From Nocardia asiatica NBRC 100129 (lineage in GTDB: Bacteria; Actinomycetota; Actinomycetes; Mycobacteriales; Mycobacteriaceae): DNA of 64,000 nucleotides. Under the pieces are notes generated by a model. The model saw only the letters and a program-made list of their open reading frames with translations, did not search any database and was not told the DNA's origin. Both the position numbers and the translations under genes were made by a program. Where the stretch lies: positions 1-64,000 of the forward strand of contig NZ_BAFS01000474.1 of NCBI RefSeq assembly GCF_000308415.1. Direction: 5' to 3'. Below are positions 26,814 to 64,000 of this stretch, piece by piece (the stretch's first letter is position 1; the number at the start of each line of letters is the position of its first letter).

Positions 26814-26931
26814 TGTCGGACCTCCGTGCCGCGGCCGCGCGAATGCGAACGGGACTCCTGTCGGTTCATAAGAACTCCTGATCGATGTGGAACGGCTCGT
26901 GTGGCGAGTCACGGTCGGTGTGAGGGCGCGG

Positions 26932-28056: not shown

Positions 28057-28062
28057 CGGTGC

Positions 28063-33483: not shown

Positions 33484-33501
33484 CTGGGCTGGGTTTCTTT
33501 C

Positions 33502-34143
33502 TCAGCGTCGTGTGAGCGGGACTAGGTCAGGAGGGGGCACCGTCATGGCGGTAACCGCCGCAGTGGTGGTGGGGCTGTCGGGTAGCTGTAGGCGCCAGTC
33601 GTCGCCATGCCAGACGACGCCGGTGTGGTTGCATGTGACGGTGTTGTCGGGATGGATGCTGTAGATGTCGACGTTTGTGGCGTCGAGCGTGTAACGGGTG
33701 ATCACGTAGCCGAGAAGTTTCGGCGGGCGGTCGGTGGTCGGGCTGGTAATCGAGATCTGTGCGCGCGCGGTCGCCCAGGCGTCGCGGCCTGGACCTGGAG
33801 CGAGCATCCGCTGTCCGACGATCGGCCATTGGTTGTCGGTGGCGATGGACATTCGCACTGTGGCGTGGATGGCGGCTAGCGCGGCTCCTGCCGGTGATCG
33901 GTCGAATCCGACAGCAACGGGTTGTTCGATGTGGCGGGGGCCTTCTTTTCCGACCGGTAGGTCGACCCCTTGGAAGGGCTGCCATCGCAGACCGGTAGGT
34001 GCGGCCACGAGTGCATTGGAAGTTGGTTCACCGATCGGGGGGTGGTTTTCGCGGCCGCAGCCAAGCAGCCCGGCAGCAGTGACCAGTACCGCTACAGCCA
34101 GCACAGCAGCGCTGGTGGTCTGGTGTGTTCGGATCGAATTCAC
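33502..34143 (-). CDS. Lipoprotein paralog of the VirB8-like accessory protein
   Basis: The GTG at 34141-34143 has GAGGAG upstream and gives 213 residues. A hydrophobic signal ends in the lipobox GLLGC (Cys about residue 29). The mature domain mirrors its neighbour with LRWQPFQGVDLPV, SPAGAALAAIHA and WHGDDWRLQLPDS. One copy is therefore anchored by a transmembrane helix and the other by lipid, presumably both on the outer face of the membrane near the secretion channel. The longer upstream frame is Arg-rich out-of-frame sequence and was discarded. Confidence 0.7.
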   Translation of the reverse strand: MNSIRTHQTTSAAVLAVAVLVTAAGLLGCGRENHPPIGEPTSNALVAAPTGLRWQPFQGVDLPVGKEGPRHIEQPVAVGFDRSPAGAALAAIHATVRMSIATDNQWPIVGQRMLAPGPGRDAWATARAQISITSPTTDRPPKLLGYVITRYTLDATNVDIYSIHPDNTVTCNHTGVVWHGDDWRLQLPDSPTTTAAVTAMTVPPPDLVPLTRR

Positions 34144-45203: not shown

Positions 45204-45458
45204 ATCTATCGCCTCGACACAGAGCGACACCCTGACCCAGCTCGCACATGTTCGGCCGCGCACATGTGGAATACACTGTGCGCCAATATGATTTGCGCCA
45301 CCTTCGGGGCGCCGATAGCCGGTTCACGGTGAAACGATTGGCTTCGTTGCCATAGCCTGGCCTGTTAGGCAGCCACGAAGCGTCCCGCGAGTCTGCACTT
45401 CCATCGATGCACCGCGCACGCTCCCGAGGCTGTTGGAAGCCAAGTAAAGGCGTATGCG

Positions 45459-46217
45459 ATGGTTGAGGATGACGATCTACCCGTACTGGCCAGGCTACTT
45501 CGGGCCGAGCGCGAAGCCGCCCAACTGACGCGCGAAGAAGCTGCCCAGATTATCAAAGTCTCGAAGGGCTTGATCTACGCGTGGGAGCGCAAAGGGCGGA
45601 CTCCCTCAGCCGAGACACTCGAGGCATTCTTGAACGGCCTCGAAGTCCCTCAGTGGCGAAGACCCAAGTACGCCGCGCTGGCACAGCCGCTGCTCAACCA
45701 GCTCAACTGGGACATGTCGCCGGTCGTCACTCCGGACGATCAGCTCGGCTTGGACCGCAACCTCGACCCCGCCTGCTACCACGACGACGCCTTCGACCTG
45801 TATGCCGCCAACGGGCCACTGCTTGACCGGTTCCCCGGGCTCGTCGCCCCCGAACCCGATGCCACAGTGCGGCCGAACTTGCTCGAGTGGGTGGTCCGCG
45901 ATCCTGCCGCGAAGAAGGTGATCGGGAACTGGGAGGAGCGGGCCACCGTCATGGCCAACGCCTTTCTCATCGTCGCGCCAGGCCGGATCCCCGAGCGACG
46001 CATCCAGCAGATCATCACCTCCTGCGAGCAAGCACCCGAATGGCCGGAAATCTCCAGGATCCGCGCCACCGACGAGCACGTCCTCAACCAACGGATTTAT
46101 CTCTGGGACCCGGAGACCGAGTGCTACGAGAACCGCATCATCACCGCCTACACCTTCAAATACCCCCCGCGTCCGTACAACGTGCTCGTATTGCAGGCAA
46201 CAGTGCCGCAAAGCTGA
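45459..46217 (+). CDS. XRE-family regulator with MmyB-like C-terminal domain
   Basis: This is a 252-residue protein. The N-terminal helix-turn-helix spans about residues 8-62 (LLRAEREAAQLTREEAAQII, then GLIYAWERKGRTPSAETLEA). The C-terminal domain includes LDRNLDPACYHDDAFDLYAANG and RPNLLEWVVRDPAAKKVIGNW, the MmyB-like ligand-binding signature. It ends with an unusual Tyr-rich extension (YENRIITAYTFKYPPRPYN). It faces the histidine phosphatase gene tail to tail. Targets are unknown. Confidence 0.85.
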   Translation: MVEDDDLPVLARLLRAEREAAQLTREEAAQIIKVSKGLIYAWERKGRTPSAETLEAFLNGLEVPQWRRPKYAALAQPLLNQLNWDMSPVVTPDDQLGLDRNLDPACYHDDAFDLYAANGPLLDRFPGLVAPEPDATVRPNLLEWVVRDPAAKKVIGNWEERATVMANAFLIVAPGRIPERRIQQIITSCEQAPEWPEISRIRATDEHVLNQRIYLWDPETECYENRIITAYTFKYPPRPYNVLVLQATVPQS

Positions 46218-46301
46218 CCAGCGCCGGGCCGCCTCGGAAGCCATCACGCCGATACCACGGCGGCGGCGTCGACGACTGCGGCGGCAGGGTTGACACGTCG
46301 G

Positions 46302-46958
46302 TCATGCGTGTCGCTTGCGCCGGGTGATGCGGTGCGGTTGCGCTCTCAAATGCTCGGCGTCGTTCGCGCGGACCAACACCCACCGCGACCCTTCGGCCTC
46401 TGCAGACTGGTGGCGAGCCGGGCGCAGCTGCCATTCGGTGATCGCGGTGTGGTCGACCTCGATCGAGGCATGCGCGCGGGAGTACGTTCCTTCCAGGAAG
46501 TACTGGGCCGCGGCGAGCGCGGTGGATTGGTGGCAGACCACCACAACCGTCTCGCCGGGATGCCTCCCCGCGATCAACTCCAACTCCCGCCCCACCCGTG
46601 GTGCCCACTGCCCCCACAGCTGCCCACCTTCACCACCCGACATCGCGCGCTCGACCGGATTCCCGTGCGCCGGCCCGAGCGGAGTCGTCTCGACCGATAG
46701 CCCCAGCAGCTGGGCCACGATCGTGGCGGTTTGCGCCGCCCGGCGTATGCCGGTGCTGTACACGCGGCTGACTTGCAGGCTCGATTGCTCGGCGGCCAAC
46801 CGCTCCGCCAGCCTCGCGGCTTGGCTTCTGCCCGTCGCGCTTAGTCTACGCTCGGTCTCTTCGCCCTCGGCGACTCCGGCGGCGTGGGTCTCACCGTGGG
46901 CGCAGCGAATAAGCAGCAGCCGTACTCCGGCACGCGCACCCCCGTCGCATCGGTCCAC
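46302..46958 (-). CDS. Histidine phosphatase superfamily protein
   Basis: The GTG at 46956-46958 gives about 218 residues; the frame is open to 47096, but that part contains the GTTGTAC palindromes and looks like promoter sequence. The active-site strand reads LLLIRCAHGETHAAG, where Cys-Ala is inserted between the usual Arg and the catalytic His-Gly-Glu. The second catalytic His is in VVVVCHQSTALAAAQ, and RVYSTGIRRAAQTATI matches the conserved helix. It belongs to the same superfamily as the gene at 1-459. The substrate is unknown, and the altered first motif may change catalysis. Confidence 0.8.
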   Translation of the reverse strand: MDRCDGGARAGVRLLLIRCAHGETHAAGVAEGEETERRLSATGRSQAARLAERLAAEQSSLQVSRVYSTGIRRAAQTATIVAQLLGLSVETTPLGPAHGNPVERAMSGGEGGQLWGQWAPRVGRELELIAGRHPGETVVVVCHQSTALAAAQYFLEGTYSRAHASIEVDHTAITEWQLRPARHQSAEAEGSRWVLVRANDAEHLRAQPHRITRRKRHA

Positions 46959-47054
46959 CAATCCGCCACCTACCTGACAATCTCGAAGCTCCGGACGTTC
47001 CCGCCCACCTCCCAACCATCGCCCGCGTCGAACACTCGTCGCCAACAACAGGGC

Positions 47055-47076
47055 GTTGTACAACAGCATGTTGTAC
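47055..47076. promoter_or_regulatory. GTTGTACAAC palindrome plus adjacent GTTGTAC half-site
   Basis: A perfect GTTGTACAAC (47055-47064) is followed by GTTGTAC at 47070-47076. It lies upstream of the histidine phosphatase start on the minus strand. The decamer is identical to the one at 11759-11768, which may indicate a common regulator. Confidence 0.4.
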
Positions 47077-47204
47077 CGCCGCGCCAGCCACCACATTCGC
47101 TAGTCGAAGGCCAGCTGCAATGGCGGCTCGGCCGCAGTTCGGTGACCGTTAGTTATCGATCAGCGTGCCTGTCTCGACGGCCGATCACGCGGTATGCAAT
47201 CATT

Positions 47205-47220
47205 TCGCACATATGTTCGA
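47205..47220. promoter_or_regulatory. LexA (SOS) box of mycobacterial type
   Basis: The sequence TCGCAC-ATAT-GTTCGA matches the mycobacterial LexA consensus TCGAAC-N4-GTTCGA with one mismatch. It lies at the 5' end of the ImuA'-like gene and includes the candidate ATG at 47213, so the real start may be slightly different or the mRNA leaderless. Confidence 0.6.
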
Positions 47221-48004
47221 TAGCTCGCAGTTGGAGGGCAGTCAACGGTCCGACGGCACCACAGCCGCAGCACCGCTGACCGACCTCCCACGTACCGAGC
47301 AACTCGCGCTCCTGCGCGCCCGCATGGACGCCATCCACGGCCGAGTCGGCGCCCGCGAAGCCCCACCGATGCCCACCACCGCACCAGCGAACACACTGCC
47401 GATCCCCGGGGCACTGGGTGAGGCGCTGCCCGCCGGTGGCCTACCGCGCGGATCGCTGATCGCTTGCACCGGACGCCTCGGCCCTCTCCTCGGATTGCTC
47501 GCCGCGGCCACCGCCGCCGGGGAATGGACCGCCGTCCTCGGCTGCCCGCGGCTGGGGTTGCTCGCCGTCGCGGAGATGGGCGGAAACCTGTCCCGCCTGG
47601 CCCACATCTCCAACCCGGGTGACGACCCCCTCGATGTCGCCGCCATCCTCCTCGACGGCCTTCCCCTCGTCGTACTCGACCACCCCGCCACCCCAGCCGC
47701 CACCCGCACACGAGCGGTCCTCGCCCGGCTTCGCAGCCATGACGCCATCCTGGTCACCACCCACACCGGCTGGGCCCGCCCCGACCTGGAAATCCACAGC
47801 GAACTTCTCGAGTGCGAGGGGATCGGCCGCGGACGCGGACGGCTGCGATCGATGACCTACACGATCCAGGTTTCCGGCCGCACAGCGCGCCGCCCACGCA
47901 GCACCTCACTACGACTGGGCGCTGCCGGGACGCAGCGATCGTGCTGGACCCGCCGACCAGCCGACCCCCACACCGCTACTACCGCGATCAGCCGGACGGG
48001 GTGA
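47213..48004 (+). CDS. ImuA'/RecA-like SOS mutagenesis accessory protein
   Basis: This is a protein of about 263 residues. The central domain follows the RecA-like pattern of actinobacterial ImuA' (Rv3395c-type): ALGEALPAGGLPRGSLIACTG with a degenerate P-loop, GEWTAVLGCPRLGLLAVAEM and LPLVVLDHPATP. In M. tuberculosis ImuA' works with ImuB and DnaE2 in damage-induced mutagenesis (established). The SOS box at the 5' end fits that role. No ImuB gene follows; instead two unknown genes do. It may be an orphan or a diverged copy carried on a mobile region. Confidence 0.65.
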   Translation: MFDSSQLEGSQRSDGTTAAAPLTDLPRTEQLALLRARMDAIHGRVGAREAPPMPTTAPANTLPIPGALGEALPAGGLPRGSLIACTGRLGPLLGLLAAATAAGEWTAVLGCPRLGLLAVAEMGGNLSRLAHISNPGDDPLDVAAILLDGLPLVVLDHPATPAATRTRAVLARLRSHDAILVTTHTGWARPDLEIHSELLECEGIGRGRGRLRSMTYTIQVSGRTARRPRSTSLRLGAAGTQRSCWTRRPADPHTATTAISRTG

Positions 48005-50388: not shown

Positions 50389-51537
50389 CTAGCTGGAGCT
50401 TGAACCGAGAGCGTAGACCGATCCAGTGGTCGGTTTGCCGCCGCGGTTTTCGTAAGGCGTGGGCACCACCGATCGCAGCACGGCCGGGGGAATTGCGAGG
50501 GCGTCGGCGGCGGCGCGGTACGGCCGCGACCCGAACCGTCGGCTGAGAAGTGTCCACAGCAGCAACGGACTCTCGTTGCCGACCTCCACAGGTTCTTCTC
50601 GTCGCCATCCTTTGGCCGACAACTGCACGAACAATGACCGTTTGCGGCTGTCGGTGATCAACTCCAGCGCTGAAGCCCTCATGATCAGCGCTTGCATCGA
50701 TACACCCCACGTTGCCTTGATCCGTCCGAAGTCGGTCAGGGTCGTCGCGTCGGAGAGAATTTCGACAGCGCGTGACCGGGGCACCAACAAGGCGGCGGCG
50801 AACTTGTTCGCCTCGCCTTCCGGGTCGGCCGCACGGGGACGGAAAGAGTGCAGCACCAAATGTCCCACCTCGTGCGCGATCGTGAATCGCTGCCGATCGC
50901 CGTGAGTTCCAGGGAAGAATCCCACCAGGGCACTCGCGCCCAGACCGCCCCAATACGACGCGCCGAAATGCCCGCCCCCCGCGGGCGCCTCATCACCGTC
51001 GATGTGCGGAGGAACGATGGGGGCCACCGCGACGCCTGCACGTTCCAGTGCTCGCGTCAGGTGGGGAATCGGCGCGTCCGGAGCGAGCCGCAGCGATTCC
51101 CGCGTCTGGTCGGCCAACTCGTTGATCTCGTCGTCACTAACCGATTCCTGAGTGACGAAAGGTAGGTCGGCGACAGGATACTTGCTCTCGGTGATCAGCC
51201 CGTCGGACACGCGGTAGCTCTCGCGATACCAGCGATGTATCCGGCGAGTCATCGTGATGCTCGCGCCTGCCAGCTTGCGAAAGCGCAGCGAATCCAGCGG
51301 AATCGCGTTCGACTCGACGTAGAAGAAGCTCAGCGGTGTCCCGGTCGCTGTCGCGATGACTTCCAGCTCCGCGTCGGTTACATCGCGGAACTGATTCTCG
51401 GCATCGGATAACCGCGACTGTCCCAACCCCGTCATCTCAGCAAGCTGCTTCTGCGTGAACCCGAATAGCTCACGCAGCGCGCGTATCCGTTCACCCGGAG
51501 ACGCCGCGAGCATCACCACCGCCTTCCTCGTCGCCAT
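50389..51537 (-). CDS. XRE helix-turn-helix fused to ImmA/IrrE metallopeptidase
   Basis: The frame gives 382 residues; an internal ATG at 51513 is also plausible. The HTH spans about residues 12-66 (RIRALRELFGFTQKQLAEMT, SRLSDAENQFRDVT). The C-terminal half has the zinc-peptidase motif FTIAHEVGHLVLHSF (HExxH) and an additional downstream acidic site in PEGEANKFAAALLVPR. This is the ImmA/IrrE architecture found in phage and mobile-element repressors and in antitoxins. Its start overlaps the end of the upstream gene by about 47 bases, so they form a unit, possibly a toxin-antitoxin pair (inference). Confidence 0.88.
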   Translation of the reverse strand: MATRKAVVMLAASPGERIRALRELFGFTQKQLAEMTGLGQSRLSDAENQFRDVTDAELEVIATATGTPLSFFYVESNAIPLDSLRFRKLAGASITMTRRIHRWYRESYRVSDGLITESKYPVADLPFVTQESVSDDEINELADQTRESLRLAPDAPIPHLTRALERAGVAVAPIVPPHIDGDEAPAGGGHFGASYWGGLGASALVGFFPGTHGDRQRFTIAHEVGHLVLHSFRPRAADPEGEANKFAAALLVPRSRAVEILSDATTLTDFGRIKATWGVSMQALIMRASALELITDSRKRSLFVQLSAKGWRREEPVEVGNESPLLLWTLLSRRFGSRPYRAAADALAIPPAVLRSVVPTPYENRGGKPTTGSVYALGSSSS

Positions 51538-52132
51538 CCGCGTGCGGCATCAACAGATCCAGACCCTCATCGGTCGGCTGGAACTCCAGATCCGACAACT
51601 CCTCAGCCGTCTCAGGAAGCACGAACTCGAGATCGACCTTCGCCTTCTCGCCCCACTTCCACGGGCCGATCGTACGGACGATCCGGAAGCTCGGTGTCGC
51701 CAACTCCGGATCGATACGCCACAGCCCCAGCAGACGGTCGTTCGCCTCCCCGGTCAAAGACAGCTGACGCGGCAGCGGCGGATTGCTGTAGTACGCCCGC
51801 CGCGCCGCGTTCGTGCCAGGCGGAGGGATGTGGTCGTCGGCGTGCGCGTGAAGCAACTGCACCCGGTAGTGGTCATCGGTCAACCACAACGCACCGTTCT
51901 GCGAATGTTGGCCACTCAGCTTCCACGCACCCAGCAGACCCTTCTTCTGCCGAAGCTTGTGGTGGGCCAGTGCACGGATCGTGTGCGTCGCATGCCAACC
52001 ATAGAGCTCGGCCTCGTCGAGTTCAGGCAGCCGCTCCCGACGGATCTGCTCAGCCCACGTGAACGTGTCGTGTAGCGGCTCACACAGATCCGACAAGGCC
52101 GCACGGACACGCTCCACATGAACCTTAATCAT
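51491..52132 (-). CDS. Unknown protein paired with XRE-ImmA peptidase
   Basis: This is a 213-residue soluble protein. It starts MIKVHVERVRAALSDLCEPL and has a basic mid-region (LRQKKGLLGAWKLSGQHSQN) and an acidic C-terminus (PHADGDEEGGGDAR). No catalytic motif could be assigned with confidence, although the H-x3-H-T pattern in YGWHATHTIRALAHHKL is notable. It is preceded by a short AT-rich promoter-like stretch (52135-52175) and overlaps the protease gene. It could be the toxin or the substrate of the downstream ImmA-like protease. Confidence 0.6.
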   Translation of the reverse strand: MIKVHVERVRAALSDLCEPLHDTFTWAEQIRRERLPELDEAELYGWHATHTIRALAHHKLRQKKGLLGAWKLSGQHSQNGALWLTDDHYRVQLLHAHADDHIPPPGTNAARRAYYSNPPLPRQLSLTGEANDRLLGLWRIDPELATPSFRIVRTIGPWKWGEKAKVDLEFVLPETAEELSDLEFQPTDEGLDLLMPHADGDEEGGGDARGVSG

Positions 52133-53066: not shown

Positions 53067-54044
53067 TCAGGCTTCCGACGCATCTACCTCTTTCTCCCCA
53101 ACGATCTTTTCGGCCGACCTTCGATTCAGCTCGCCAAATGGGACGTGAACCGAGGGTACATATTTGCTGGTATCTATCAAATGACTTTCTTGATCGTCAA
53201 AGAATATGTGCGGCTTCAGAACTTGCATGACTCGGCCTTTGTCGACGCCCCCCAAGAAGAATGCATTATCGACCTGCACCTCCCAGGCTTTGAGACTGAG
53301 GATCATCCGCTCATGCGCTGGCGCGTTACGTGAGGTCACGACCGAAATTGACAGCCGTCGACGATAATTGCTATCGCTCTTACACCTTTCCCTTTCCATC
53401 GTCTGGATACGGGACAGCGCCTTCAAGAAAGGCAGAAGCAGCCCCTCCGGGTGGGTCTCGTTGGCGTGTTCGGATTCACTCGCATGAAAAGCACTGATGC
53501 CACCCGATTGGAAAATCTGCTCGGCACTGTCGTTCGTCAGGATCCCATCGAAGTCGAAAGCGATCCGCAGTTGATCACTATCATCCGCTTCTGCGACCGA
53601 GGCAAGGACAAGTCCAGCCGGGTGGTGCTGTTCGACCGCGGCGCGGACCGCTTCGTCGTCCGCCGACAGGTACAAGGAGATGTTGAAGGGGGGAATGAAC
53701 TCGTACGGAGATCGCCCGGCAGTGAAGATAGCCCGTGTGATGGCCAGGCCGTGACGCGACACGGATCTCATGACCCGCAAGCCTGTATCAGGATCGTTTC
53801 GCGACATAATGACTACCTCAACGAGGGGATCACCCATATTCGGAGAAAGATCATTGAGTTGCAGTATTCGCTTGACGAATTGAAACGCTACACCCGGCTG
53901 CAGAGCATCCTCAAGATGCTCCTCCTGATACCTTCGGTAAGCTGCTTCACCCTGTTCTCTGAAAACTCGGTCTGCCTCTCCAAGGTCGAATAATGCGCTC
54001 GAAGCGACGCCTATTACCAGGCGATCATCAAGGATGTAGGGCAC
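53067..54044 (-). CDS. Cytosolic 5'-nucleotidase family protein
   Basis: This is a 325-residue protein. The family signature is seen in VVIMSRNDPDTGLRVMRSV and GLAITRAIFTAGRSPYEFIP, followed by RIAFDFDGILTNDSAEQIFQ, a HAD-like DxDG motif. This matches the 5'-nucleotidase family that includes cytosolic cN-I-type enzymes, which dephosphorylate nucleoside monophosphates. Base composition is lower in GC than the neighbours, especially near the 3' end (53140-53260), suggesting separate acquisition. It is divergent from the folate/thymidylate operon, and a shared promoter region of about 280 bases lies between them. It may control nucleotide pools for that operon (inference). Confidence 0.82.
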   Translation of the reverse strand: MPYILDDRLVIGVASSALFDLGEADRVFREQGEAAYRRYQEEHLEDALQPGVAFQFVKRILQLNDLSPNMGDPLVEVVIMSRNDPDTGLRVMRSVSRHGLAITRAIFTAGRSPYEFIPPFNISLYLSADDEAVRAAVEQHHPAGLVLASVAEADDSDQLRIAFDFDGILTNDSAEQIFQSGGISAFHASESEHANETHPEGLLLPFLKALSRIQTMERERCKSDSNYRRRLSISVVTSRNAPAHERMILSLKAWEVQVDNAFFLGGVDKGRVMQVLKPHIFFDDQESHLIDTSKYVPSVHVPFGELNRRSAEKIVGEKEVDASEA

Positions 54045-54321: not shown

Positions 54322-54930
54322 ATGCGACAGCGCTGGGCCAGCGCCGACAAGCTGACACGCATGCTCGCGGAGTCCCGGATCGAAGTCGATCTCGACGGGC
54401 CGGTCGGGTTCCTGGCGTTGCATGGCGGGATCGAAAGTGGCACAGCAACGTTGGCTCTTCGGGCGGCGTCGCGGGTGGGCGGGTCCGCGCTGATCGTGCG
54501 TCAGCAGTCCAACGACACTCGCCTGCATGTCTCGTCCAACGAGTTCGCCCCCGAACTGTTTCCGCAACTGCGGCTGATACTGGATCATTGCCCTGTGATT
54601 GTGTCGCTGCACGGCCATAACCGCCGCGCGTTCGCCCACCATGTCATGGTCGGCGGACAGAACCGGGTGTTGGCGGGGAAGATGGCGTCCTGCCTGCGGC
54701 GCCACACCGAGCGTCTAGCCGTCATCGACGACTTGGCGGTCATTCCCCCCGAGATCAATGGCACGAAGCCGGCCAACCCGGTCAACATTGCCGCGGCCGG
54801 CACCCAACTCGAGATTCCGCACCTACCCGATGTGACCCGCCCGTGGTCACTTCATATGGATCCGCGAGTCGAGGATGAACTTCTCGCCGGCCTGTGCGAG
54901 TTCGCTGATCTCGTTCACCGCCACAACTGA
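54322..54930 (+). CDS. Poly-gamma-glutamate hydrolase-like zinc peptidase
   Basis: The ATG at 54322 follows GAAGGAG and gives 202 residues. The pattern matches the poly-gamma-glutamate hydrolase family (phage PghP/YndL): FLALHGGIESGTATLALRAA, then RLHVSSNEFAPE, VIVSLHGHN, VMVGGQNR and a final AAAGTQLEIPH. The His and Glu residues in these segments are the expected zinc ligands and active-site residues. Known members cleave gamma-glutamyl bonds. It starts an operon whose next gene is dihydropteroate synthase, so gamma-glutamyl folate tails are a possible substrate (inference). No signal peptide is present, so it acts inside the cell. Confidence 0.78.
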   Translation: MRQRWASADKLTRMLAESRIEVDLDGPVGFLALHGGIESGTATLALRAASRVGGSALIVRQQSNDTRLHVSSNEFAPELFPQLRLILDHCPVIVSLHGHNRRAFAHHVMVGGQNRVLAGKMASCLRRHTERLAVIDDLAVIPPEINGTKPANPVNIAAAGTQLEIPHLPDVTRPWSLHMDPRVEDELLAGLCEFADLVHRHN

Positions 54931-54962
54931 CAACCCGCACGCTCGGCAGGAGCTCAGCCCGC

Positions 54963-55730
54963 ATGCCCGTGAAGATCATGGGTGTTCTCAACGTGACTCC
55001 CGACTCGTTCTCCGACGGCGGCCTCTACCTTGATCCCCACCGCGCGCTCGATCGCGCATATCAGATGCTCGATGAGGGCGCGGACATCATTGACATCGGC
55101 GGCGAGTCAACCCGCCCAGGCGCGACGCCGGTCGAGCCCGATGTCGAATGGGAGCGCGTCGGCCCGGTTATCGAGGCTTTGGCGGGTAACTGTGTCCTGA
55201 GCGTGGACACGCGCCATCCCAATGTCGCCCGTGCTGCGGTTGGCTGTGGTGTAAGCATCCTCAACGACGTTTCCGCCAGCCTGTCCGAGGTTGCCGCACA
55301 GAACCAAGTGACGTGGATCGCCATGCACATGCAACGTGACCCATCGACAATGCAGCGTGATCCTCACTACACGAATGTCGTCGCCGAGGTACGCGCCTAC
55401 CTAGCCGCATGCACTGATGACGCACTGCGCCGGGGGGTGCCCGAGGTGCTTGTCGATCCGGGCATCGGCTTCGGCAAGAACTTCCAGCACAATCTCGAGC
55501 TGTTACGCCATCTCGACAAGTTCGCTGATCTGGCGCATGGCCTCGTCCTAGGCGTTTCACGCAAATCGGTGCTCGGCGAAGCTATCGGTCAGACCGATCC
55601 GCTGCGGAGGCTGTCAGCAGCTCTAGCTGTGTCGGCCCTTGCAGTGAGCAAGGGGGTGTCGATCATACGAACCCACGATGTCGCCGAGACCATCCAAGCC
55701 GTTCGTATGGCCGAGTTTCTACAGGGGTAA
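54963..55730 (+). CDS. folP: Dihydropteroate synthase
   Basis: This is a 255-residue protein with AGGAGCT before the ATG. All family motifs are present: MGVLNVTPDSFSDGG, GADIIDIGGESTRPGA, LSVDTRHPNVA, LNDVSAS, MHMQ, VDPGIGFGKN, GVSRKS and IIRTHDV. The enzyme joins p-aminobenzoate to 6-hydroxymethyl-dihydropterin diphosphate in folate synthesis and is the target of sulfonamides. The MHMQ segment has Gln where MHMRG is usual, and the loop carries a short MQRDPSTMQRDP duplication. Outside the usual folate operon it is probably an extra copy, perhaps serving the adjacent ThyX or giving antifolate tolerance (inference). Confidence 0.95.
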   Translation: MPVKIMGVLNVTPDSFSDGGLYLDPHRALDRAYQMLDEGADIIDIGGESTRPGATPVEPDVEWERVGPVIEALAGNCVLSVDTRHPNVARAAVGCGVSILNDVSASLSEVAAQNQVTWIAMHMQRDPSTMQRDPHYTNVVAEVRAYLAACTDDALRRGVPEVLVDPGIGFGKNFQHNLELLRHLDKFADLAHGLVLGVSRKSVLGEAIGQTDPLRRLSAALAVSALAVSKGVSIIRTHDVAETIQAVRMAEFLQG

Positions 55731-55903
55731 TACCGTCGTCCCCATCACAACGGCACCTGCTCTAGACTCGGCCCCCAGACCGGAACCTCACACAGCAAGC
55801 ACTCGGGCACCTAGCGCACAGTGGGGCGTGTCGGTGAAACAGGGACTCCTGCGGGTGTGTAATCGTGTGGCTAGGGCCCCTCTGTATTTGGAAGGACGAT
55901 CGG

Positions 55904-56638
55904 ATGGCTGCTCTCGACACCGACACCGACGTGACCACCCGCAGCGATGTCGAGGTCGAGCTCGTCAAATCGCAGGCATCCGATGCTGACGTCCTGTTCG
56001 CTGCGAGGGTATCGACCCAGGGCCCTGAGTCGCTCGCTGCAGTCGAGGCAGACGCCACCGGATCGTCGGGCTTGATCAATTTCCTGATGAAGAACCGGCA
56101 CGGGTCGCCCTTCGAGCACAACTCGTTCACCTTCTACATTCATGCGCCGATCTTCGTGTTCCGCGAGTTGATGCGCCATCGCATCGCCTCATACAACGAA
56201 GAATCCGGCCGCTACCGCCAGCTGCGGCCGGTCTTCTACAAGCCGTCGATCTCACGCAACATCGTCCAGGTCGGCAAGGCCGGCGCCTACACCTTCGAAC
56301 CGGGCACCTCAGACCAGTATGAAGTGCTCGACGAGCAGGTCGATGCCGCATACGAAGCGTGCTACCGCTCGTACACCGCGATGCTCGAGGCTGGTATCGC
56401 GCGGGAAGTGGCACGCATCGTCCTACCGGTCGGCCTGTTCTCCAGCGCGTACATGACCGTCAACGCGCGCTCGCTGATGAATGTGCTGTCACTGCGCACC
56501 AAGAGCCCCGACTCTGCCTACCCCAGCTTCCCTCAAGCCGAAATCGAGATGGTCGCTGAGCAGATGGAGAAGAAGTTCGCCGAGCTGATGCCGCTCACAC
56601 ACGCTGCTTTCGTCAAGAACGGCCGCGTCGCTCCCTGA
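55904..56638 (+). CDS. thyX: Flavin-dependent thymidylate synthase
   Basis: The ATG at 55904 follows GGAAGGA and gives 244 residues. The ThyX motif is complete: RHRIASYNEESGRY (RHRxxSxNExSxRY), followed by the C-terminal R-x3-P pattern in AREVARIVLPVGLFSS. ThyX methylates dUMP using methylene-tetrahydrofolate, FAD and NADPH, releasing tetrahydrofolate without forming dihydrofolate. It is probably a second thymidylate synthase, here next to dihydropteroate synthase. A paired function in folate-dependent pyrimidine modification is likely, and the substrate may differ from dUMP. Confidence 0.95.
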   Translation: MAALDTDTDVTTRSDVEVELVKSQASDADVLFAARVSTQGPESLAAVEADATGSSGLINFLMKNRHGSPFEHNSFTFYIHAPIFVFRELMRHRIASYNEESGRYRQLRPVFYKPSISRNIVQVGKAGAYTFEPGTSDQYEVLDEQVDAAYEACYRSYTAMLEAGIAREVARIVLPVGLFSSAYMTVNARSLMNVLSLRTKSPDSAYPSFPQAEIEMVAEQMEKKFAELMPLTHAAFVKNGRVAP

Positions 56639-56782
56639 TCTCTCTCGGCAGTACCCGAACCGAGCCACCAGCGCCCGGTTCGGGCGAACGTGCGCGCCAG
56701 CTCCCGCGGACCGATATTCTTAACTCGCGGCATAGTCCGTGATTCTTTGATCCGCAGTACATTTCGCCTGCAGGGGGCGCGG

Positions 56783-57793
56783 ATGACCAGTCCGATCGAG
56801 AACGTCGTCCACGCGCGGGCTGGTATGCGCCAACGCCTGCTGCGTCCTGACACCCGCCAGGTACTCATCGCACGCCTGGACGGATCACTGGAGGCGGTCG
56901 ACAGCTACACACGCGTCAACTGCGCAGGCTATGGGAGAATTCGCCGCTTCAACAGCTTCGGCATCCACCTACGCTCCACCCCCGGCGCTTCCAGACCGAA
57001 GCCGCTGTATCGCGGGTTGCCGCCAGCCTTGCCATACACCACTCAGGTCTTCCAACTGGGCGGATGCAACTGGGCGTGTTGGTACTGCTTCGTCGATGAC
57101 GCGCTGCTGTCAGGCGACCAAACCCGCGGTAGGTTCATGACGGCCGCGGAACTAGTCGACTTGTATCTCGCTGACGCCGACCCACCCCCCGCGCTGGATC
57201 TGTCAGGCGGACAACCCGACCTTGTGCCCGAGTGGTGCCTTTGGATGATGCAAGAACTCGATGAACGCGGCCTGCGCGGTCACGTCCCCATATGGATCGA
57301 TGACAACCTCAGTGGTCACTGGATGCGTCAAGTGCTCTCCGCCCAAGACATCGCCTACATGGCCGCCTACCCCCGGCACTCCCGAGTCGGATGCTTCAAA
57401 GGCTTCGACGAAGCCTCCTTCGTCGACAACACCGGCGCTCCCACATCCTCGTTCGACCGCCAATTCGCCGTCCTCGCCGAACTTCTCACCGCAGGCTTCG
57501 ACCTCTACACCTACGCCACCTTCACCGCGCGTCCCAAGCCCGACCGACACATCCCCTCAGCGATGAAGGCTTTCGTCGATCGGCTACAGGCCATCCATCC
57601 CGACCTTCCGCTGCGCACCATCCCTCTCGAGATCCGCCCCTACACCGCAATCAGCAGTCGCATCGCCTCCGCGGACGCCGAACCGTTCTACCGGCTGCAA
57701 TATCAAGCAGCTGCGGCATGGGAACACGAACTACACACCCGGTTCACCGAGGACCAACGACAGACGCCGTACGAAGACATCCAACTTCGCTGA
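56783..57793 (+). CDS. Radical SAM enzyme
   Basis: The ATG at 56783 gives 336 residues. The cluster-binding motif is GGCNWACWYCFVDD (CxxxCxxC) around residue 100, followed by ALDLSGGQPDL, a GGE-like SAM-binding segment. The N-terminal 90 residues include VNCAGYGRIRRFNSFGIHL, which is not part of the usual barrel. No second Fe-S cluster motif (SPASM) is seen. The reaction is unknown. Location immediately after ThyX and before a glutaredoxin-like gene suggests modification of a pyrimidine nucleotide, or thiol chemistry on a folate/nucleotide product (inference). Confidence 0.88.
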   Translation: MTSPIENVVHARAGMRQRLLRPDTRQVLIARLDGSLEAVDSYTRVNCAGYGRIRRFNSFGIHLRSTPGASRPKPLYRGLPPALPYTTQVFQLGGCNWACWYCFVDDALLSGDQTRGRFMTAAELVDLYLADADPPPALDLSGGQPDLVPEWCLWMMQELDERGLRGHVPIWIDDNLSGHWMRQVLSAQDIAYMAAYPRHSRVGCFKGFDEASFVDNTGAPTSSFDRQFAVLAELLTAGFDLYTYATFTARPKPDRHIPSAMKAFVDRLQAIHPDLPLRTIPLEIRPYTAISSRIASADAEPFYRLQYQAAAAWEHELHTRFTEDQRQTPYEDIQLR

Positions 57794-57808
57794 TCCCGGG
57801 GGTGAACC

Positions 57809-58087
57809 ATGCCATCACGCGACGTCGAACTGTACATACACGGAACGCCGGACCATCCGCGCACAGCGCATTCTCTGCTGGCCTGCCGCATGCTGGCTTA
57901 CCACAGCGTCACCTACACCGCCTACGACGTCCTCACCGACCAGCAAGCGCGCAACCGCGCGCAAACTGCGTCCGGTGTCCGAATGTGGCCCCAAGTCTTC
58001 GCCGACGGCGAATATCTCGGGGGCACCGAGGTACTCTGCGAACTGCTTCGCTCCGGGCAACTCCGTCCCCACCGCAACGCAGCGTAG
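57809..58087 (+). CDS. Glutaredoxin-like protein without active-site cysteine
   Basis: This is a 92-residue thioredoxin-fold protein. The pattern YIHGTPDHPRTAHSLLACRM aligns with the KGTPxxPxCGFSxxA segment of CGFS monothiol glutaredoxins, but the Cys is Thr (TAHS). Later motifs are conserved: WPQVFADGEYLGGTEVL, with the glutathione-binding WPQ and GG. The only nearby Cys is several residues downstream (LLACRML). It may be a binding protein or use that Cys. It lies fifteen bases after the radical SAM gene and two before the WD40 gene. Confidence 0.75.
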   Translation: MPSRDVELYIHGTPDHPRTAHSLLACRMLAYHSVTYTAYDVLTDQQARNRAQTASGVRMWPQVFADGEYLGGTEVLCELLRSGQLRPHRNAA

Positions 58088-58089
58088 CC

Positions 58090-59745
58090 ATGATCGAGCC
58101 GACTCGTCTGTGGCGTATACCCGGAACCTCCACAGCTCCGAGCCCACACACCGCCGGCGACAGCCCTAGCACAACAGCGATAGACCTCGACCCCACAATC
58201 GGCACCATCTGGTTCGGCCGCATCGATGGTGTTCTCCTCTCAGCCGCAGGCGCCGGCCCCGTCTCACCGGGGCCCTCCCCGATCACCGCCATCGCTGCCC
58301 GCAGCTCCGGCCTGGCTGTCGGCACACACTCCGGCCAGGTATTCGCCCTACCGGTAGACACCACCGGACACCCCGGCAACCCGGTCCGAGTAGATCACCA
58401 TCGCGGCCCGATCAGCGGATTGTGCTGGAGCGGCACTGACAGCACCGCGCTCATCTCAGCAGGATGGGACGGGCACATCCGTGCGCACCGCCGGGGTAGC
58501 GGCTCCCACGTCGTCCACGCAGGCAACACCTCTGTCACGGCCATCACACCCACTTCCGACGGCGTCGCTGCCGCTCTCCTCGACGGTGCCGTCCTGGTCA
58601 CTTCTGCTGGCGGCACCTTCACCGAACTTGCAAGGCTCGATGCTGTGCCGACTGCCATCACCACCGGTCCCGGCGGGCAGCTCATTGTTTCCACCGCCCG
58701 TCACACCATCGCCCGCATCACGCCGACAGGAACAGTCATCACATCCTCGACGCGCCTGCAGGGGATGCCTCTGGCCCTCGCCACCGATCATGCCCGCGAC
58801 ATGCTCGCAATCGCCGCAGTCGACGGCACGATCAGCCAATGGTCACTGAACGACCTCATGCCTGGCACAGTGCTGTCGCTCGCCGGAGCGCCGATCCCGA
58901 CCCTGGCCCTCGGCCATGGCGATACCCTCTACTACGGCAGCCGCGGCGGCGGGATCACCGCGGCCGCAATATCGTCTGCGCTCTCCCATGGCGAAGTGCC
59001 CACACCAGGCGGACAGATCTGGTCACTGCGCCTTTCACTGCCCGCAGGTCTGGTCGCCTCAGCAGGTACGGACAGCAGGATCTGTTTGCGAGATCTGTCC
59101 ACCGGCAGACTGCGCCGCACTCTTACCGGTCACGACGGCTGGATCAACTCCGTCGCCTTCACCACCGACGGCCAACTCCTAGCCACCGGATCCGCAGACA
59201 CCACCGTCCGACTCTGGAACCCCCACTCCGGCCAACACCTGCGCACTCTTACCGGTCACGACGGCTGGATCAACTCCGTCGCCTTCACCACCGACGGCCA
59301 ACTCCTAGCCACCGGATCCGCAGACACCACCGTCCGACTCTGGAACCCCCACTCCGGCCAACACCTGCGCACCCTCACCGGTCACTCGTGCCCAGTCACA
59401 TCCGTGGCCGCCGCCCACACAAAAATCCTCACCACCGGCCACGACACCAACGTCATCACCTGGAACACCGACGGCGAACGCCTCATGACCGGTCACCACC
59501 GACGTCACGTCTGGATGGCTGCGATCCGTCCCGATGGCCGCCTCTCCGCCACTATCGGCGCCGACAACGCCGTCCGGATATGGGACCCACTCGCCCCCCA
59601 GCAAACGACCGCCTTCCACCTACCCGACGTCGGCACCGCGTGCGACCTCGCCACACTCGATCACCAGCGCGTGCTACTCGGCACCGCTAGCCGCGATGGC
59701 GGCATAGAACTGAGGCTTCTCATTTCTAAGGCGACAGCGAGTTAA
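58090..59745 (+). CDS. WD40-repeat protein
   Basis: The ATG at 58090 immediately follows the glutaredoxin-like stop and gives 551 residues. WD40 repeats are clear in the C-terminal half: LTGHDGWINSVAFTTDGQLL and GSADTTVRLWNPHSGQHL, present as two identical 42-residue units, then a diverged LTGHSCPVTSVAA unit and a final AVRIWDP. The N-terminal half has weaker repeats (for example ISGLCWSGTDSTALISAGWD). Such beta-propellers scaffold multiprotein complexes. It probably assembles or docks the operon's enzymes. No enzymatic domain is fused to it. Confidence 0.9.
   Translation: MIEPTRLWRIPGTSTAPSPHTAGDSPSTTAIDLDPTIGTIWFGRIDGVLLSAAGAGPVSPGPSPITAIAARSSGLAVGTHSGQVFALPVDTTGHPGNPVRVDHHRGPISGLCWSGTDSTALISAGWDGHIRAHRRGSGSHVVHAGNTSVTAITPTSDGVAAALLDGAVLVTSAGGTFTELARLDAVPTAITTGPGGQLIVSTARHTIARITPTGTVITSSTRLQGMPLALATDHARDMLAIAAVDGTISQWSLNDLMPGTVLSLAGAPIPTLALGHGDTLYYGSRGGGITAAAISSALSHGEVPTPGGQIWSLRLSLPAGLVASAGTDSRICLRDLSTGRLRRTLTGHDGWINSVAFTTDGQLLATGSADTTVRLWNPHSGQHLRTLTGHDGWINSVAFTTDGQLLATGSADTTVRLWNPHSGQHLRTLTGHSCPVTSVAAAHTKILTTGHDTNVITWNTDGERLMTGHHRRHVWMAAIRPDGRLSATIGADNAVRIWDPLAPQQTTAFHLPDVGTACDLATLDHQRVLLGTASRDGGIELRLLISKATAS
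59119..59370. repeat. Perfect tandem 126-bp WD40 duplication
   Basis: Bases 59119-59244 and 59245-59370 are identical (126/126), each encoding one 42-residue WD40 blade. Complete identity including third codon positions shows a very recent duplication or ongoing repeat exchange. Confidence 0.95.
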
Positions 59746-61720: not shown

Positions 61721-61903
61721 ATGGTGGCCGCGACGAATTCTGGCTTTACCGGGCCTCTTCAGTACGAGCGCAACTACGACCCGGCTGACCTGCCCTCTAA
61801 CACTAGACGGGACAGCACAGCCGATCGGCAGCACTATCGGGGATGCGAATTGGTCGCTGCAAGAATCATTTACGACAACGTCATGGGCGGGGGTAGCAGA
61901 TGA
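61721..61903 (+). CDS. Possible 60-residue protein coupled to the kinase-fusion gene
   Basis: An ATG frame of 60 residues ends in TGA at 61901-61903, overlapping the ATG of the next gene (ATGA). The product is polar and begins MVAATNSGFTGPLQYERNYD. The coupling is the main support; no ribosome binding site or family was recognised. Confidence 0.35.
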   Translation: MVAATNSGFTGPLQYERNYDPADLPSNTRRDSTADRQHYRGCELVAARIIYDNVMGGGSR

Positions 61904-64000
61904 TCGGAGCTCCGTCGATCAAGCGGCTCGGTGACTCGACGATCCGATTCGCTGGTGTCGACCCGAACGATCTGCGTGATCCCGATGGCAAGACCCTGAT
62001 AGCCGATCGTGTCCGTTACCAGGGCATGGGCCTGTCTGTGCTGATCACGTCAACGTTCGCCGTGTTCGCGATGCCGATGGCCCTGACTGTGATGAGCGGA
62101 CACTTCTCGTGGATCTACGTGATCGCCGGATTGCTGTATGGCGTGTTCATCTTGAACTTCGATCGTTGGGTGGTCTCGGGCTTCGACTACGACTCCGGAT
62201 GGAAGGCTCGGCTCCGCGCTGCTGCGGGCTTGATGATCCGTCTTCCAATCGCCCTGCTCATCGCCCTGTCCATCAGCGAGCCGATCGTCATGTTTGTGTT
62301 CGCGTCCGAGATCCACGCCCAGGTCATCGAGCACAAGCATCAGGAGAAGATTGATCAGGCCGACAAACTTCGCAACGACCCGCTCTACGACCCACACAGA
62401 TCCGAACAGTTCGCGGCGCTGAACAGGGCAAACGATGCTGTGAAGAACACGCGGGATACGCTCGATGCGGCAGAGAAGGCCCTCGACCTGGAGCAGGGCG
62501 GAGCCGGCGGAACCGGTCACTCAGGGTATGGGGACCGCACTTCCGAACGGCGCGCTGTCCGCACGAAAGCGGCCGAGGCGTTCGATTCGGCAGTGAGCAC
62601 GCAGGTTGAGGCGCAGAACAATTACAACGGCAAGTCCGCGGAACTCGCTGCGGCCCGGCAAGCAGCGATCGAAGCCAGTGACCGGCGGATCGATGAGCGT
62701 GTCGCGGGTCTGGCGGACCGGGAGCGGGCGCTTGCCGCCATCAGCCACGATCCTGCTGTCGCGAAAACGACCCTGGTGATGCGGGGTTTGTTGTTCTTGG
62801 TCGACGTGGCGCCGCTGCTGCTGAAGTACGCGATGCCTGCGACGTTCTACGAACAGATGCTTCGCGCCCGAGGACGGCGTCTCCTCGACCGACATACGGA
62901 AGACTTGCAGGCTACTGAGGAACTCGCCAAAGAACGCCGCGTTCTGGAGAACGCGACCGCGCGTTACAAGCTCAATCAACAGGCCATCGTCGATGAGGAA
63001 AAGATCGCCAGGGACAGCGATCTCGAGCTGAGAAAGGTCATCGCCGAGCACACTCGTCAGGTCGTCACATCGGGCTACGAGCGCCTTCACGATGTCGGCA
63101 CCCTCGATCCTCCGCGGCGCAACCCGTCACGTCCCCCGGCTGTTGGACCGCAACCCGCTCGACACCCGGCCCCACGGCCGGGACCGACACCACATGACGA
63201 CATCCACGACGACCCGGACCTTCCGACCAACCCCGACCCTCATGATGTCCCGAACGACGGCCGCTCCCAGGTAGTCGGTGAACGATGGGCTATCAAGGAC
63301 GCGCTGACCAAACCGCGCAGCGACCACCCCTGGCGTCGCGCCTACCTGGCAAAGGACCTACTCAAGAAGGAAAAGGGCGACTGCGTCCTCAAACGCGTCG
63401 ACCAGCCATACAAGGGACAACGCATATCGATGGGGTTGAACGAGCTGCATTCTCTACCGGAGGGCCGCGAGATCAGTCCCTACGTGGCCCCCATGGTTCA
63501 CGGGGGTTACGACGTCAACTTCGGCCTGTTCGTGGTGACCCCGTACTACAAGCGAGGGACGCTGGCCGAACTCATGCGGGACGGTGCCGAATCGCTGACA
63601 CTGCGGACCGCGCTGAAGTACATCGAGCAGATCCTGCAGGGCCTGCTCGCGGTCTTCGAGTACAGCAACACCATCCATTTCGACATCAAGCCGTCGAACA
63701 TCGCCCTGGACAAGAAGGGCAACATCCGCATCATCGACTGGGGCCTGGCAACCTCCAGCGATACCGCAGACAGCGCACCGGTCGGGTTCTCCCTGTGGTA
63801 CGCCCCGCCCGAACAAGTCACCGCCACCGAGCGCAACCAGGAGTGGAGATCAGGGCGTTGTGACATTCGCGCGGTCGGCGCGACGCTCTACACTTTGATC
63901 GTCGGATCCGCACCTCTGTACCTGGAGGCGGCCAACCTCCAACTGCTCGATGAGCACGGTGTACTACCGGACGACCGCAAGCACGAGTTCATCCGACTGC
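61900..64000 (+). CDS. DUF4407 membrane protein fused to serine/threonine-kinase-like domain (3' end outside window)
   Basis: The open frame runs from the ATG at 61900 through the window edge, at least 700 residues. Residues about 1-385 are a DUF4407 protein: membrane segments around 44-64, 70-86 and 106-134, a long Glu/Gln/Ala-rich coiled coil with a further hydrophobic stretch near 290-310, and a Pro/Asp-rich linker (about 410-470). Residues about 480-700 are a protein-kinase-like domain with HFDIKPSN (H593, D595, K597, N600), IDWGLA (D613, DFG position) and WYAPPEQ (APE position). It is a non-RD kinase: Phe replaces Arg in HRD. The glycine-rich loop is not obvious. This is a membrane-tethered kinase; the substrate is unknown. 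Confidence 0.85.
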   Translation, partial: MIGAPSIKRLGDSTIRFAGVDPNDLRDPDGKTLIADRVRYQGMGLSVLITSTFAVFAMPMALTVMSGHFSWIYVIAGLLYGVFILNFDRWVVSGFDYDSGWKARLRAAAGLMIRLPIALLIALSISEPIVMFVFASEIHAQVIEHKHQEKIDQADKLRNDPLYDPHRSEQFAALNRANDAVKNTRDTLDAAEKALDLEQGGAGGTGHSGYGDRTSERRAVRTKAAEAFDSAVSTQVEAQNNYNGKSAELAAARQAAIEASDRRIDERVAGLADRERALAAISHDPAVAKTTLVMRGLLFLVDVAPLLLKYAMPATFYEQMLRARGRRLLDRHTEDLQATEELAKERRVLENATARYKLNQQAIVDEEKIARDSDLELRKVIAEHTRQVVTSGYERLHDVGTLDPPRRNPSRPPAVGPQPARHPAPRPGPTPHDDIHDDPDLPTNPDPHDVPNDGRSQVVGERWAIKDALTKPRSDHPWRRAYLAKDLLKKEKGDCVLKRVDQPYKGQRISMGLNELHSLPEGREISPYVAPMVHGGYDVNFGLFVVTPYYKRGTLAELMRDGAESLTLRTALKYIEQILQGLLAVFEYSNTIHFDIKPSNIALDKKGNIRIIDWGLATSSDTADSAPVGFSLWYAPPEQVTATERNQEWRSGRCDIRAVGATLYTLIVGSAPLYLEAANLQLLDEHGVLPDDRKHEFIRL

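What the first reader, a model, noticed from the sequence alone, without database searches (positions are those of the whole stretch)
54322..59745. Folate/thymidylate operon with radical SAM, Cys-less glutaredoxin and WD40 scaffold
A poly-gamma-glutamate-hydrolase-like protein, FolP, ThyX, a radical SAM enzyme, a glutaredoxin-like protein and a WD40 protein are closely spaced on one strand, facing a 5'-nucleotidase. I know of no described pathway with this set. Ideas: a pyrimidine-modifying pathway with its own folate supply, deglutamylation of folates by the first gene, or a module giving tolerance to antifolates. It may cooperate with the hydroxymethylase cluster on the other side of the window, which also needs methylene-tetrahydrofolate.
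Basis: partly seen in the sequence, partly recalled or inferred. Interest (0 to 1): 0.72.

Follow-up and report, generated by a model that had tools for sequence, protein, structure and literature searches.

The report
Radical-SAM operon in Nocardia defence island
Six bacterial genes read by eye as a folate and thymidine pathway turn out to be built around a small, widely travelled, undescribed radical-enzyme module that sits among known virus-defence genes, with the folate and thymidine genes seen beside it only in Nocardia.

Summary
The genes are real and correctly named, but the emphasis should move. The tight core is a triad: radical SAM (rSAM), Cys-less monothiol-glutaredoxin-like, WD40 (gaps 15 and 2 bp). 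My searches found no description of this rSAM family. In 80 of 86 loci examined it sits with two to six genes of a mobile cassette (DUF6932, RmrA-like XRE/ImmA, DUF4186, BpsA/methyltransferase-like, ASCH, NMP-kinase-like). The other six loci, the window included, form one clade, lack that cassette and carry the Grx-like gene instead. In those 86 loci FolP and the poly-gamma-glutamate-hydrolase-like gene occur only in the window and a decayed Nocardia takedensis copy; ThyX only in the window. So no conserved folate pathway. The operon lies beside RmrA-RmrT (RosmerTA defence) and PDC-S08 (the 5'-nucleotidase); the Solirubrobacter triad lies beside a CAP12-type TIR gene. ThyX looks like a dTMP maker, not a PolB-type UMP methylase; FolP is not Sul-like; the genome keeps ThyA and other DHPS-family genes. 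Best reading: a defence-island rSAM module acting on a nucleotide, in Nocardia coupled to, or merely neighbouring, dTMP/folate genes. Substrate and defence function are inferred, not shown.

The parts
50389..51537 (-). neighbour: RmrA, XRE + ImmA/IrrE protease antitoxin of RosmerTA
   Evidence: PADLOC PDLC03953 1.6e-177; the RmrA-RmrT stretch is matched at 76% nt in 2 of the 59 Nocardia genomes (own counted in the 59)
51491..52132 (-). neighbour: RmrT, RosmerTA toxin
   Evidence: PADLOC PDLC03939 1.4e-84
53067..54044 (-). divergent neighbour: 5'-nucleotidase, = phage-defence candidate PDC-S08
   Evidence: PF06189 5.3e-118; PDLC04900 1.3e-129; relatives on 46 plasmid records
54322..54930 (+). 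poly-gamma-glutamate-hydrolase-like zinc peptidase (PGAH)
   Evidence: PF05908 2e-17; 3a9l 1.6e-6, HGGIE and SLHG kept
54963..55730 (+). FolP, dihydropteroate synthase
   Evidence: TIGR01496 1.9e-86; 2dqw 2.1e-69
55904..56638 (+). ThyX, flavin-dependent thymidylate synthase; only ThyX found in this genome
   Evidence: TIGR02170 2.2e-57; 4p5a 1.1e-73
56783..57793 (+). radical SAM enzyme, core of the module
   Evidence: PF04055 2.4e-5; 80 relatives kept of 87 found in genomes and 7 plasmid records; AF2 model pLDDT 88.4; PFL-activating enzyme Z 16.8
57065..57088 (+). CX3CX2C cluster-binding motif of the rSAM (CNWACWYC)
   Evidence: invariant in alignment A3 of 45
57809..58087 (+). monothiol-glutaredoxin-like protein, active-site Cys replaced by Thr (codon at 57863)
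   Evidence: TIGR00365 4.6e-14, 52 bits, below that model's cut-off of 117; 3zyw 2.6e-10; alignment
58090..59745 (+). WD40 repeat protein
   Evidence: PF00400 2.8e-39; homologues next to the rSAM in L012, L013, L014, L016
59116..59385 (+). 126-bp tandem repeat, 2.1 copies, 98%: duplicated WD40 blade

Best explanation
The locus is a defence-island operon whose working core is the triad radical SAM - Cys-less Grx-like - WD40. Most likely the rSAM uses a [4Fe-4S] cluster and SAM to alter a nucleotide (a pyrimidine deoxynucleotide is my guess), the WD40 propeller and the Grx-like protein act as scaffold or sensor and docking parts for it, and the product interferes with or marks invading nucleic acid. 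In Nocardia the triad has picked up PGAH, FolP and ThyX, which could feed it dTMP and folate or keep the thymidylate pool up while it works. Shown: gene content, phylogeny, context, predicted folds, ThyX type by sequence. Inferred: substrate, defence role, role of the folate genes.
For: Genome scan: 87 relatives, best 80 kept, plus 7 plasmid records, five of them fetched. In the 86 loci examined (80, five plasmid loci, window), profiles find DUF6932 in 56, XRE/ImmA in 74 (one of them the window's own RmrA, 17.8 bits), DUF4186 in 73, MT in 67, ASCH in 72, kinase in 74; 80 loci have at least two of the six and 49 have all six; the other six loci have none (RmrA apart) and are exactly the six with the Grx-like gene. 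They form one clade, 100/98. The triad is packed with gaps of 15 and 2 bp. Defence context: RmrA, RmrT, PDC-S08 beside the window operon; CAP12/Pycsar TIR beside the L012 triad (PF10137 2.3e-27); among 126 nearest-flank proteins from 73 cassette loci the tallies show dGTPase 4, Aga_Cas4-like_Nuc 3, integrase 4, DUF763 3, dCTP deaminase 2 (25 of 179 and of 111 families shown). Nucleotide link: the kinase-like protein hits phage dNMP kinase (phrog_139 1.3e-9), VakA 1.2e-5 and, as a profile, adenylate-kinase-type structures (AdkA-like 3lw7 2.7e-11 over its length); ASCH domain; ThyX in the window, with Phe at the PolB Tyr126 position.
Against: No substrate test. The fold nearest to the rSAM is pyruvate formate-lyase activating enzyme (Z 16.8), then QueE 13.4; viperin 11.9, so the fold does not point to nucleotides. 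The triad lacks kinase and ASCH, so the nucleotide argument is carried over from the other clade. The Grx-like protein keeps its Cys in L013/L014, so Cys loss is not a trait of the whole clade. Only one of four distinct triads outside the window (L012) was seen beside a named defence gene; the flanks of the others were not scanned against PADLOC, and L016 and L019 are broken. The one published test of a PDC-M63AB pair that I found saw no defence activity (PMC12409345, passages); the cassette's DUF6932 protein matches PDC-M63A. FolP-ThyX and ThyX-rSAM gaps are 173 and 144 bp, the latter with a terminator-like site. No control was run for the flank tallies.
Confidence: 0.4

Rival explanations
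1. Chance neighbours: PGAH-FolP, a phage- or plasmid-like ThyX and the rSAM-Grx-WD40 triad are separate cargo piled up in one island and share no pathway.
For: FolP/PGAH/ThyX absent from the triad loci outside Nocardia; gaps 173 and 144 bp, a terminator-like site in the second; ThyX is 61-62% identical to the best-listed actinophage ThyX and 58-64% to eight Streptomyces plasmid ThyX, and among 38 other genus genomes only one weak 30% match was seen; only patchy matches to 44.2-64 kb in the Nocardia genomes searched.
Against: PGAH-FolP-rSAM-Grx-WD40 keep their order in N. takedensis at 67-69% nt identity over the alignable blocks, so the linkage is not recent; all six genes lie on one strand.
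Confidence: 0.3
2. One reading: a pyrimidine-modifying pathway with its own folate supply, perhaps serving the hydroxymethylase cluster at 5.5-6.4 kb.
For: A thymidylate-synthase-like gene is at 5465-6430 (-) (PF00303 1.6e-29); ThyX and FolP are both folate-linked.
Against: No folate genes with the triad outside Nocardia in the loci examined; RosmerTA and PDC-S08 lie between the clusters; the genome has other DHPS-family copies (5 PF00809 places) and ThyA, so no own supply is needed.
Confidence: 0.12
3. Antifolate-tolerance module: spare FolP plus ThyX bypass of ThyA.
For: Spare DHPS and ThyX genes in one operon.
Against: FolP scores far below the Sul1-4 cut-offs (97-150 bits against 475-600); gives no role for rSAM, Grx, WD40; no dihydrofolate reductase among the ten proteins scanned.
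Confidence: 0.05
4. The rSAM is an activase or peptide/protein modifier, like PFL-AE or a RiPP maturase, and the Grx-like protein or another protein is its target.
For: PFL-AE is the best structural match (Z 16.8, 228 aligned, 3.3 A); the only profile hit among PDB sequences at E 0.1 or less is a sactipeptide-type enzyme, 5wgg, E 0.026.
Against: No glycyl-radical enzyme among the proteins scanned; small precursor peptides were not searched for; the usual cassette has a nucleotide-kinase-like gene.
Confidence: 0.13

Closest known systems
RosmerTA (RmrA-RmrT) phage defence
   Same: Direct neighbour in the window (PADLOC 1.6e-177 and 1.4e-84); the usual cassette has an RmrA-like XRE/ImmA gene (6e-10 for the L010 protein)
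   Different: The window operon itself has no ImmA gene; rSAM, Grx, WD40 are not part of RosmerTA as described (PMC10440598 passages)
Prokaryotic viperins (pVip) with viperin-associated kinases
   Same: Radical SAM; in the usual cassette a VakA-like kinase (1.2e-5)
   Different: pVip model only E 0.0074 over the cluster region; PFL-AE and QueE score higher in fold comparison; no kinase in the triad
PADLOC candidate PDC-M63
   Same: First gene of the usual cassette (L010) matches PDC-M63A (6.6e-16)
   Different: Absent from the window; PDC-M63AB is a two-gene candidate, the cassette here has seven
PolB, UMP/dUMP methylase of polyoxin biosynthesis
   Same: Best PDB relative of the window ThyX (4p5a, 1.1e-73; that 4p5a is PolB is recalled, and its residues 94-99, 124 and 126 fit PMC5003785)
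   Different: Window has Phe at the Tyr126 position that PolB needs for full UMP activity
Branched-chain polyamine synthase BpsA
   Same: Fold of the MT protein of the usual cassette (Z 22.6, 278 aligned, 3.5 A; next family 17.2)
   Different: 11-12% identity; no such gene in the window operon

Membership tests
Prokaryotic viperin | match to pVip profile over the whole enzyme | tested here: inconclusive
   E 0.0074, residues 93-163 only
Prokaryotic viperin | viperin as clearly nearest fold | tested here: inconclusive
   viperin 5vsl Z 11.9, below PFL-AE 16.8 and QueE 13.4
Prokaryotic viperin | makes 3'-deoxy-3',4'-didehydro nucleotides (recalled) | not testable with these tools
   needs enzyme assay
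Radical SAM superfamily | CX3CX2C and rSAM fold | tested here: met
   invariant in 45 sequences; rSAM proteins fill the listed structure matches
Grx4-type monothiol glutaredoxin | CGFS cysteine | tested here: not met
   TAHS in the window; Thr or Ser at that place also in L016, L012, L019; Cys kept in L013/L014
ThyX | over the TIGR02170 cut-off and RHRx7S-type motif (motif recalled) | tested here: met
   194 bits against 87.9; RHRIASYNEES in the sequence
PolB-type UMP methylase | Tyr126 (important for UMP, PMC5003785) | tested here: not met
   Phe at that column of the phmmer alignment, counted by eye
Sul sulfonamide-resistant DHPS | over Sul1-4 cut-offs | tested here: not met
   97-150 bits against 475-600
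Poly-gamma-glutamate hydrolase (PghP) | PF05908 over cut-off and His/Glu/His metal residues (roles recalled) | tested here: met
   63.7 bits against 22; HGGIE and SLHG aligned with 3a9l
PDC-M63/DUF4186 cassette | DUF6932, XRE/ImmA, DUF4186, MT, ASCH, kinase beside the rSAM | tested here: not met
   none beside the window rSAM; only RmrA, about 5 kb off on the other strand, matches the XRE profile, weakly (17.8 bits)

The most novel reading that the evidence does not exclude
A previously undescribed family of radical SAM enzymes makes an altered nucleotide for defence in bacteria of many phyla, independently of viperin, in two builds: a mobile seven-gene cassette with its own NMP kinase, ASCH reader and BpsA-like transferase, and a compact rSAM-Grx-WD40 build, which in Nocardia is tied to its own thymidylate and folate genes.
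Probability: 0.25. Interest if true: 0.88.

Novelty: new variant of a known kind. Interest (0 to 1): 0.64.

Why it matters
Radical SAM chemistry in immunity is known mainly from viperins (recalled). A second rSAM family that moves between phyla on plasmids and islands, with nucleotide-kinase-like and ASCH partners, would be a new source of antiviral nucleotides or DNA modifications, and the Nocardia operon would point to its substrate pool (thymidylate). If false, it is still a well defined, widely spread, unexplained gene module.

Tried and rejected
Phage and viral relatives of the rSAM: none in 50,697 phage records and none confirmed by two IMG/VR pattern scans; the viral structure library gave only general radical SAM proteins among its best matches. 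Antifolate resistance: FolP not Sul-like. Ribothymidylate synthesis: PolB Tyr126 not kept. A nucleotide-binding rSAM fold: not decided by structure; viperin was not excluded. RNA families: none in the window at gathering score. PGAH has no plasmid relative at E 1e-3. Empty-site search: in 59 Nocardia genomes (own included; match list cut) the listed matches to 44.2-64 kb were patchy, so insertion ends were not defined; in one genome two adjoining matches join window 45188 to 47366, upstream of the operon. The first profile for FolP drifted into rSAM because of the fused N. takedensis frame and was replaced by single-sequence search. The first clustering merged several cassette families and was replaced by profiles. 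Profile counts cover whole loci; within 4.5 kb of the rSAM they are DUF6932 53, XRE/ImmA 70, DUF4186 72, MT 66, ASCH 72, kinase 74 of 86. No control set was run for the flank tallies, so enrichment is not claimed; members behind each tally are not named, and the dGTPase ones are probably the cyanobacterial cluster L029, L030, L033, L057, so not independent. L013 and L014 are identical in rSAM and count as one. The tree's bootstrap had not settled (0.981) and its root is arbitrary.

Literature: searches for DUF4186 (4 papers), radical SAM + ASCH domain, PolB/polyoxin/ThyX/dUMP, rSAM + kinase terms (8 of 559 listed), DUF6932 (none), PDC-M63, rSAM + defence terms (12 of 18 listed), rSAM + hypermodified phage DNA, rSAM/WD40/glutaredoxin/TS/DHPS (10 of 21 listed), RmrA/RmrT (8 of 224 listed). 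No listed paper appeared to describe this module; subscription papers are mostly not held, and the library states that no bioRxiv preprints are held. Read as passages only: PMC9679502, PMC10853773, PMC7641849, PMC5003785, PMC12409345, PMC4158269, PMC10440598.
Full report
Observation. Families: PF05908 PGA hydrolase, TIGR01496 DHPS, TIGR02170 ThyX, a radical SAM protein only weakly seen by Pfam, a Grx4-like protein and a WD40 protein. The Grx-like protein has TAHS where 3zyw (glutaredoxin-3) has CGFS. The 5'-nucleotidase is divergent, not facing. Gaps are 32, 173, 144, 15 and 2 bp in order (coordinates), so the tight unit is rSAM-Grx-WD40. A terminator-like site lies in the 144-bp gap, though such sites are no more frequent in the region than by chance.

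The rSAM family. tblastn found 7 plasmid relatives in 72,556 records at 40-42% identity and none in 50,697 phage records. An alignment of the window and five plasmid proteins, used as query over one genome per species, found 87 relatives; the tool kept the best 80, from Actinomycetota, Pseudomonadota, Bacteroidota, Acidobacteriota, Chloroflexota, Cyanobacteriota, Planctomycetota, others and one thaumarchaeal bin. In the window's genus 2 of 150 genomes have it: the window's own and one (G175) whose fetched 3,606 bases are contained letter for letter in the N. takedensis locus L016, which is why I call the genus Nocardia. In 396 Actinomycetota genomes only the window's own gave a strong match; three others gave partial matches at E 1.8e-4 to 9.6e-4.

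Two builds. Iterated profiles over all ORFs of 86 loci (80, five plasmid loci, window) gave DUF6932 in 56, XRE/ImmA in 74, DUF4186 in 73, MT in 67, ASCH in 72 and the kinase-like gene in 74. One of the 74 XRE/ImmA loci is the window itself, by its RmrA at 17.8 bits. Many loci are cut by contig ends. Eighty loci have at least two of the six genes, 49 have all six. The remaining six, the window, L012 Solirubrobacter, L013 and L014 (identical rSAM), L016 N. takedensis and L019 Bryobacteraceae, have none (RmrA apart) and are the only ones with the Grx-like gene. WD40 homologues lie beside the rSAM in five of the six; in L019 the Grx-like frame runs on into what looks like the start of a WD40 region (my reading). 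A sixth WD40 hit, in L057, is about 10.7 kb from its rSAM on the other strand and is left out. A maximum-likelihood tree puts the six in one clade (100/98), grouped with L015 and L017, which carry cassette genes, at 97/87 (root arbitrary, two rows are fragments, bootstrap not settled).

Nocardia additions. Single-sequence searches over the same ORFs find PGAH and FolP only in window and L016, ThyX and the 5'-nucleotidase only in the window. In L016 the DNA aligns to window 54358-55356 and 56813-58050 at 67 and 69%. There PGAH and rSAM are frameshifted, FolP is cut after about residue 133 and runs into the rSAM frame, no ThyX is found, and only the first third of WD40 matches. So the linkage of PGAH-FolP with the triad predates the split of the two loci, and the second copy is decaying. 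What lay between FolP and rSAM in N. takedensis before is unknown.

Folate and thymidylate genes. The genome has five PF00809 places over the cut-off (one in a 1580-residue frame, perhaps MetH, not tested), a strong ThyA-family match and the distant TS-like gene of the window, and just one ThyX. In 38 other genus genomes only one weak 30% match to this ThyX was seen. The ThyX resembles those of eight Streptomyces plasmids (58-64%) and actinophages (61-62% in the listed best rows). Its best PDB relative is 4p5a, which I recall as PolB; PMC5003785 (passages) reports that Tyr126 is found in PolB but is Phe in Streptomyces ThyX, and that Y126F keeps dUMP but loses over 60% of UMP activity. The window has Phe there, so dTMP is the expected product. 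FolP is an ordinary DHPS. PGAH keeps HGGIE and SLHG of 3a9l; whether it cuts folyl-polyglutamates is untested.

Structure. The AF2 model of the rSAM (45 sequences, pLDDT 88.4, pTM 0.88) matches PFL-activating enzyme best by VIA-align (8fo0 Z 16.8, 3.3 A, 228 aligned), then QueE (5tgs 13.4), RlmN (12.6), spore photoproduct lyase (12.2) and viperin (5vsl 11.9); Foldseek alone ranks lipoyl synthases first at E 8.2e-5. The fold does not decide the substrate. Invariant residues outside the cluster motif include C46, C203, D172-D173-N174-L175-S176 and K205-G206. The MT protein of the usual cassette, with DPPWY invariant in 27 sequences, models well (pLDDT 89.2) and is nearest to branched-chain polyamine synthase BpsA (6j27 Z 22.6, 3.5 A, 278 aligned) ahead of ordinary methyltransferases (17.2). 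A transferase of an aminopropyl or similar group is thus as likely as a methylase (inference).

Context. PADLOC names the two genes at 50389-52132 RmrA (1.6e-177) and RmrT (1.4e-84) and the 5'-nucleotidase PDC-S08 (1.3e-129). RosmerTA is an experimentally supported phage-defence family (PMC10440598, passages). The Solirubrobacter triad lies beside a CAP12/Pycsar TIR gene. In the one cassette scanned gene by gene (L010), the first protein matches PDC-M63A (6.6e-16) and the second RmrA (6e-10). Of 126 nearest-flank proteins from 73 loci (the five non-window triad loci left out; ORFs chosen by a codon score), the tallies include dGTPase 4, Aga_Cas4-like_Nuc 3, AbiEi 2, integrase 4, DUF763 3, dCTP deaminase 2 and a ribonucleotide reductase domain 1; nine of them scanned one by one include a relaxase, a DNA-alkylation-repair protein, a CHAT-TPR protein, a dCTP-deaminase-like protein and NrdR. 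No control was run. In Tolypothrix PCC 7712 the cassette (record 15983-21923) lies within an 18,401-base insertion at 15,435-33,835 that distinguishes it from PCC 7601 (PMC9679502, passages). Against a defence role: the one test of PDC-M63AB that I found saw no activity (PMC12409345, passages).

Conclusion. The evidence makes the rSAM triad the core and the folate and thymidylate genes a Nocardia addition. I commit to a defence-island module that alters a nucleotide, at 0.4, with plain co-location of separate cargo at 0.3. The mended counts did not change these odds.

Noticed in passing
L010:12374-18329, L011:12380-18320; 49 of 86 loci have all six partner genes: Conserved mobile cassette DUF6932 - XRE/ImmA - DUF4186 - rSAM - BpsA/MTase-like (DPPWY) - ASCH - NMP-kinase-like across phyla; a finding in its own right.
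   Followed up: partly
50389-52132: RosmerTA pair RmrA-RmrT; a 76% identical stretch is in two of the 59 Nocardia genomes.
   Followed up: partly
L016:8869-12344: Decayed N. takedensis copy: frameshifts in PGAH and rSAM, FolP cut and fused to the rSAM frame, no ThyX found, WD40 match cut short.
   Followed up: yes
59116-59385: Two nearly identical 126-bp copies, probably a recently duplicated WD40 blade.
   Followed up: no
61900-64000 (open): DUF4407 domain in one frame with a Ser/Thr protein kinase domain (PF14362, PF00069).
   Followed up: no
1-42000, - strand: Large biosynthetic-looking cluster with a thymidylate-synthase-like gene (5465-6430), carbamoyltransferase, epimerase and FAD-binding monooxygenase; four of ten sampled ORFs (362-489 aa; some may be shadow frames) had no Pfam match at 1e-6.
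   Followed up: no
L012:7017-8039: CAP12/Pycsar-type TIR protein directly upstream of the Solirubrobacter WD40-rSAM-Grx triad.
   Followed up: partly
L029, L030, L033, L057, L009 near the cassette: One gene family of about 474 aa, annotated as a dGTPase in L009, lies next to the cassette in five cyanobacterial loci; elsewhere dCTP deaminase-like (L050) and NrdR-like (L026) genes are next to it.
   Followed up: partly
21912-22005: ARAGORN calls a 94-base tRNA-Gly inside ORFs of the biosynthetic cluster; possibly false.
   Followed up: no
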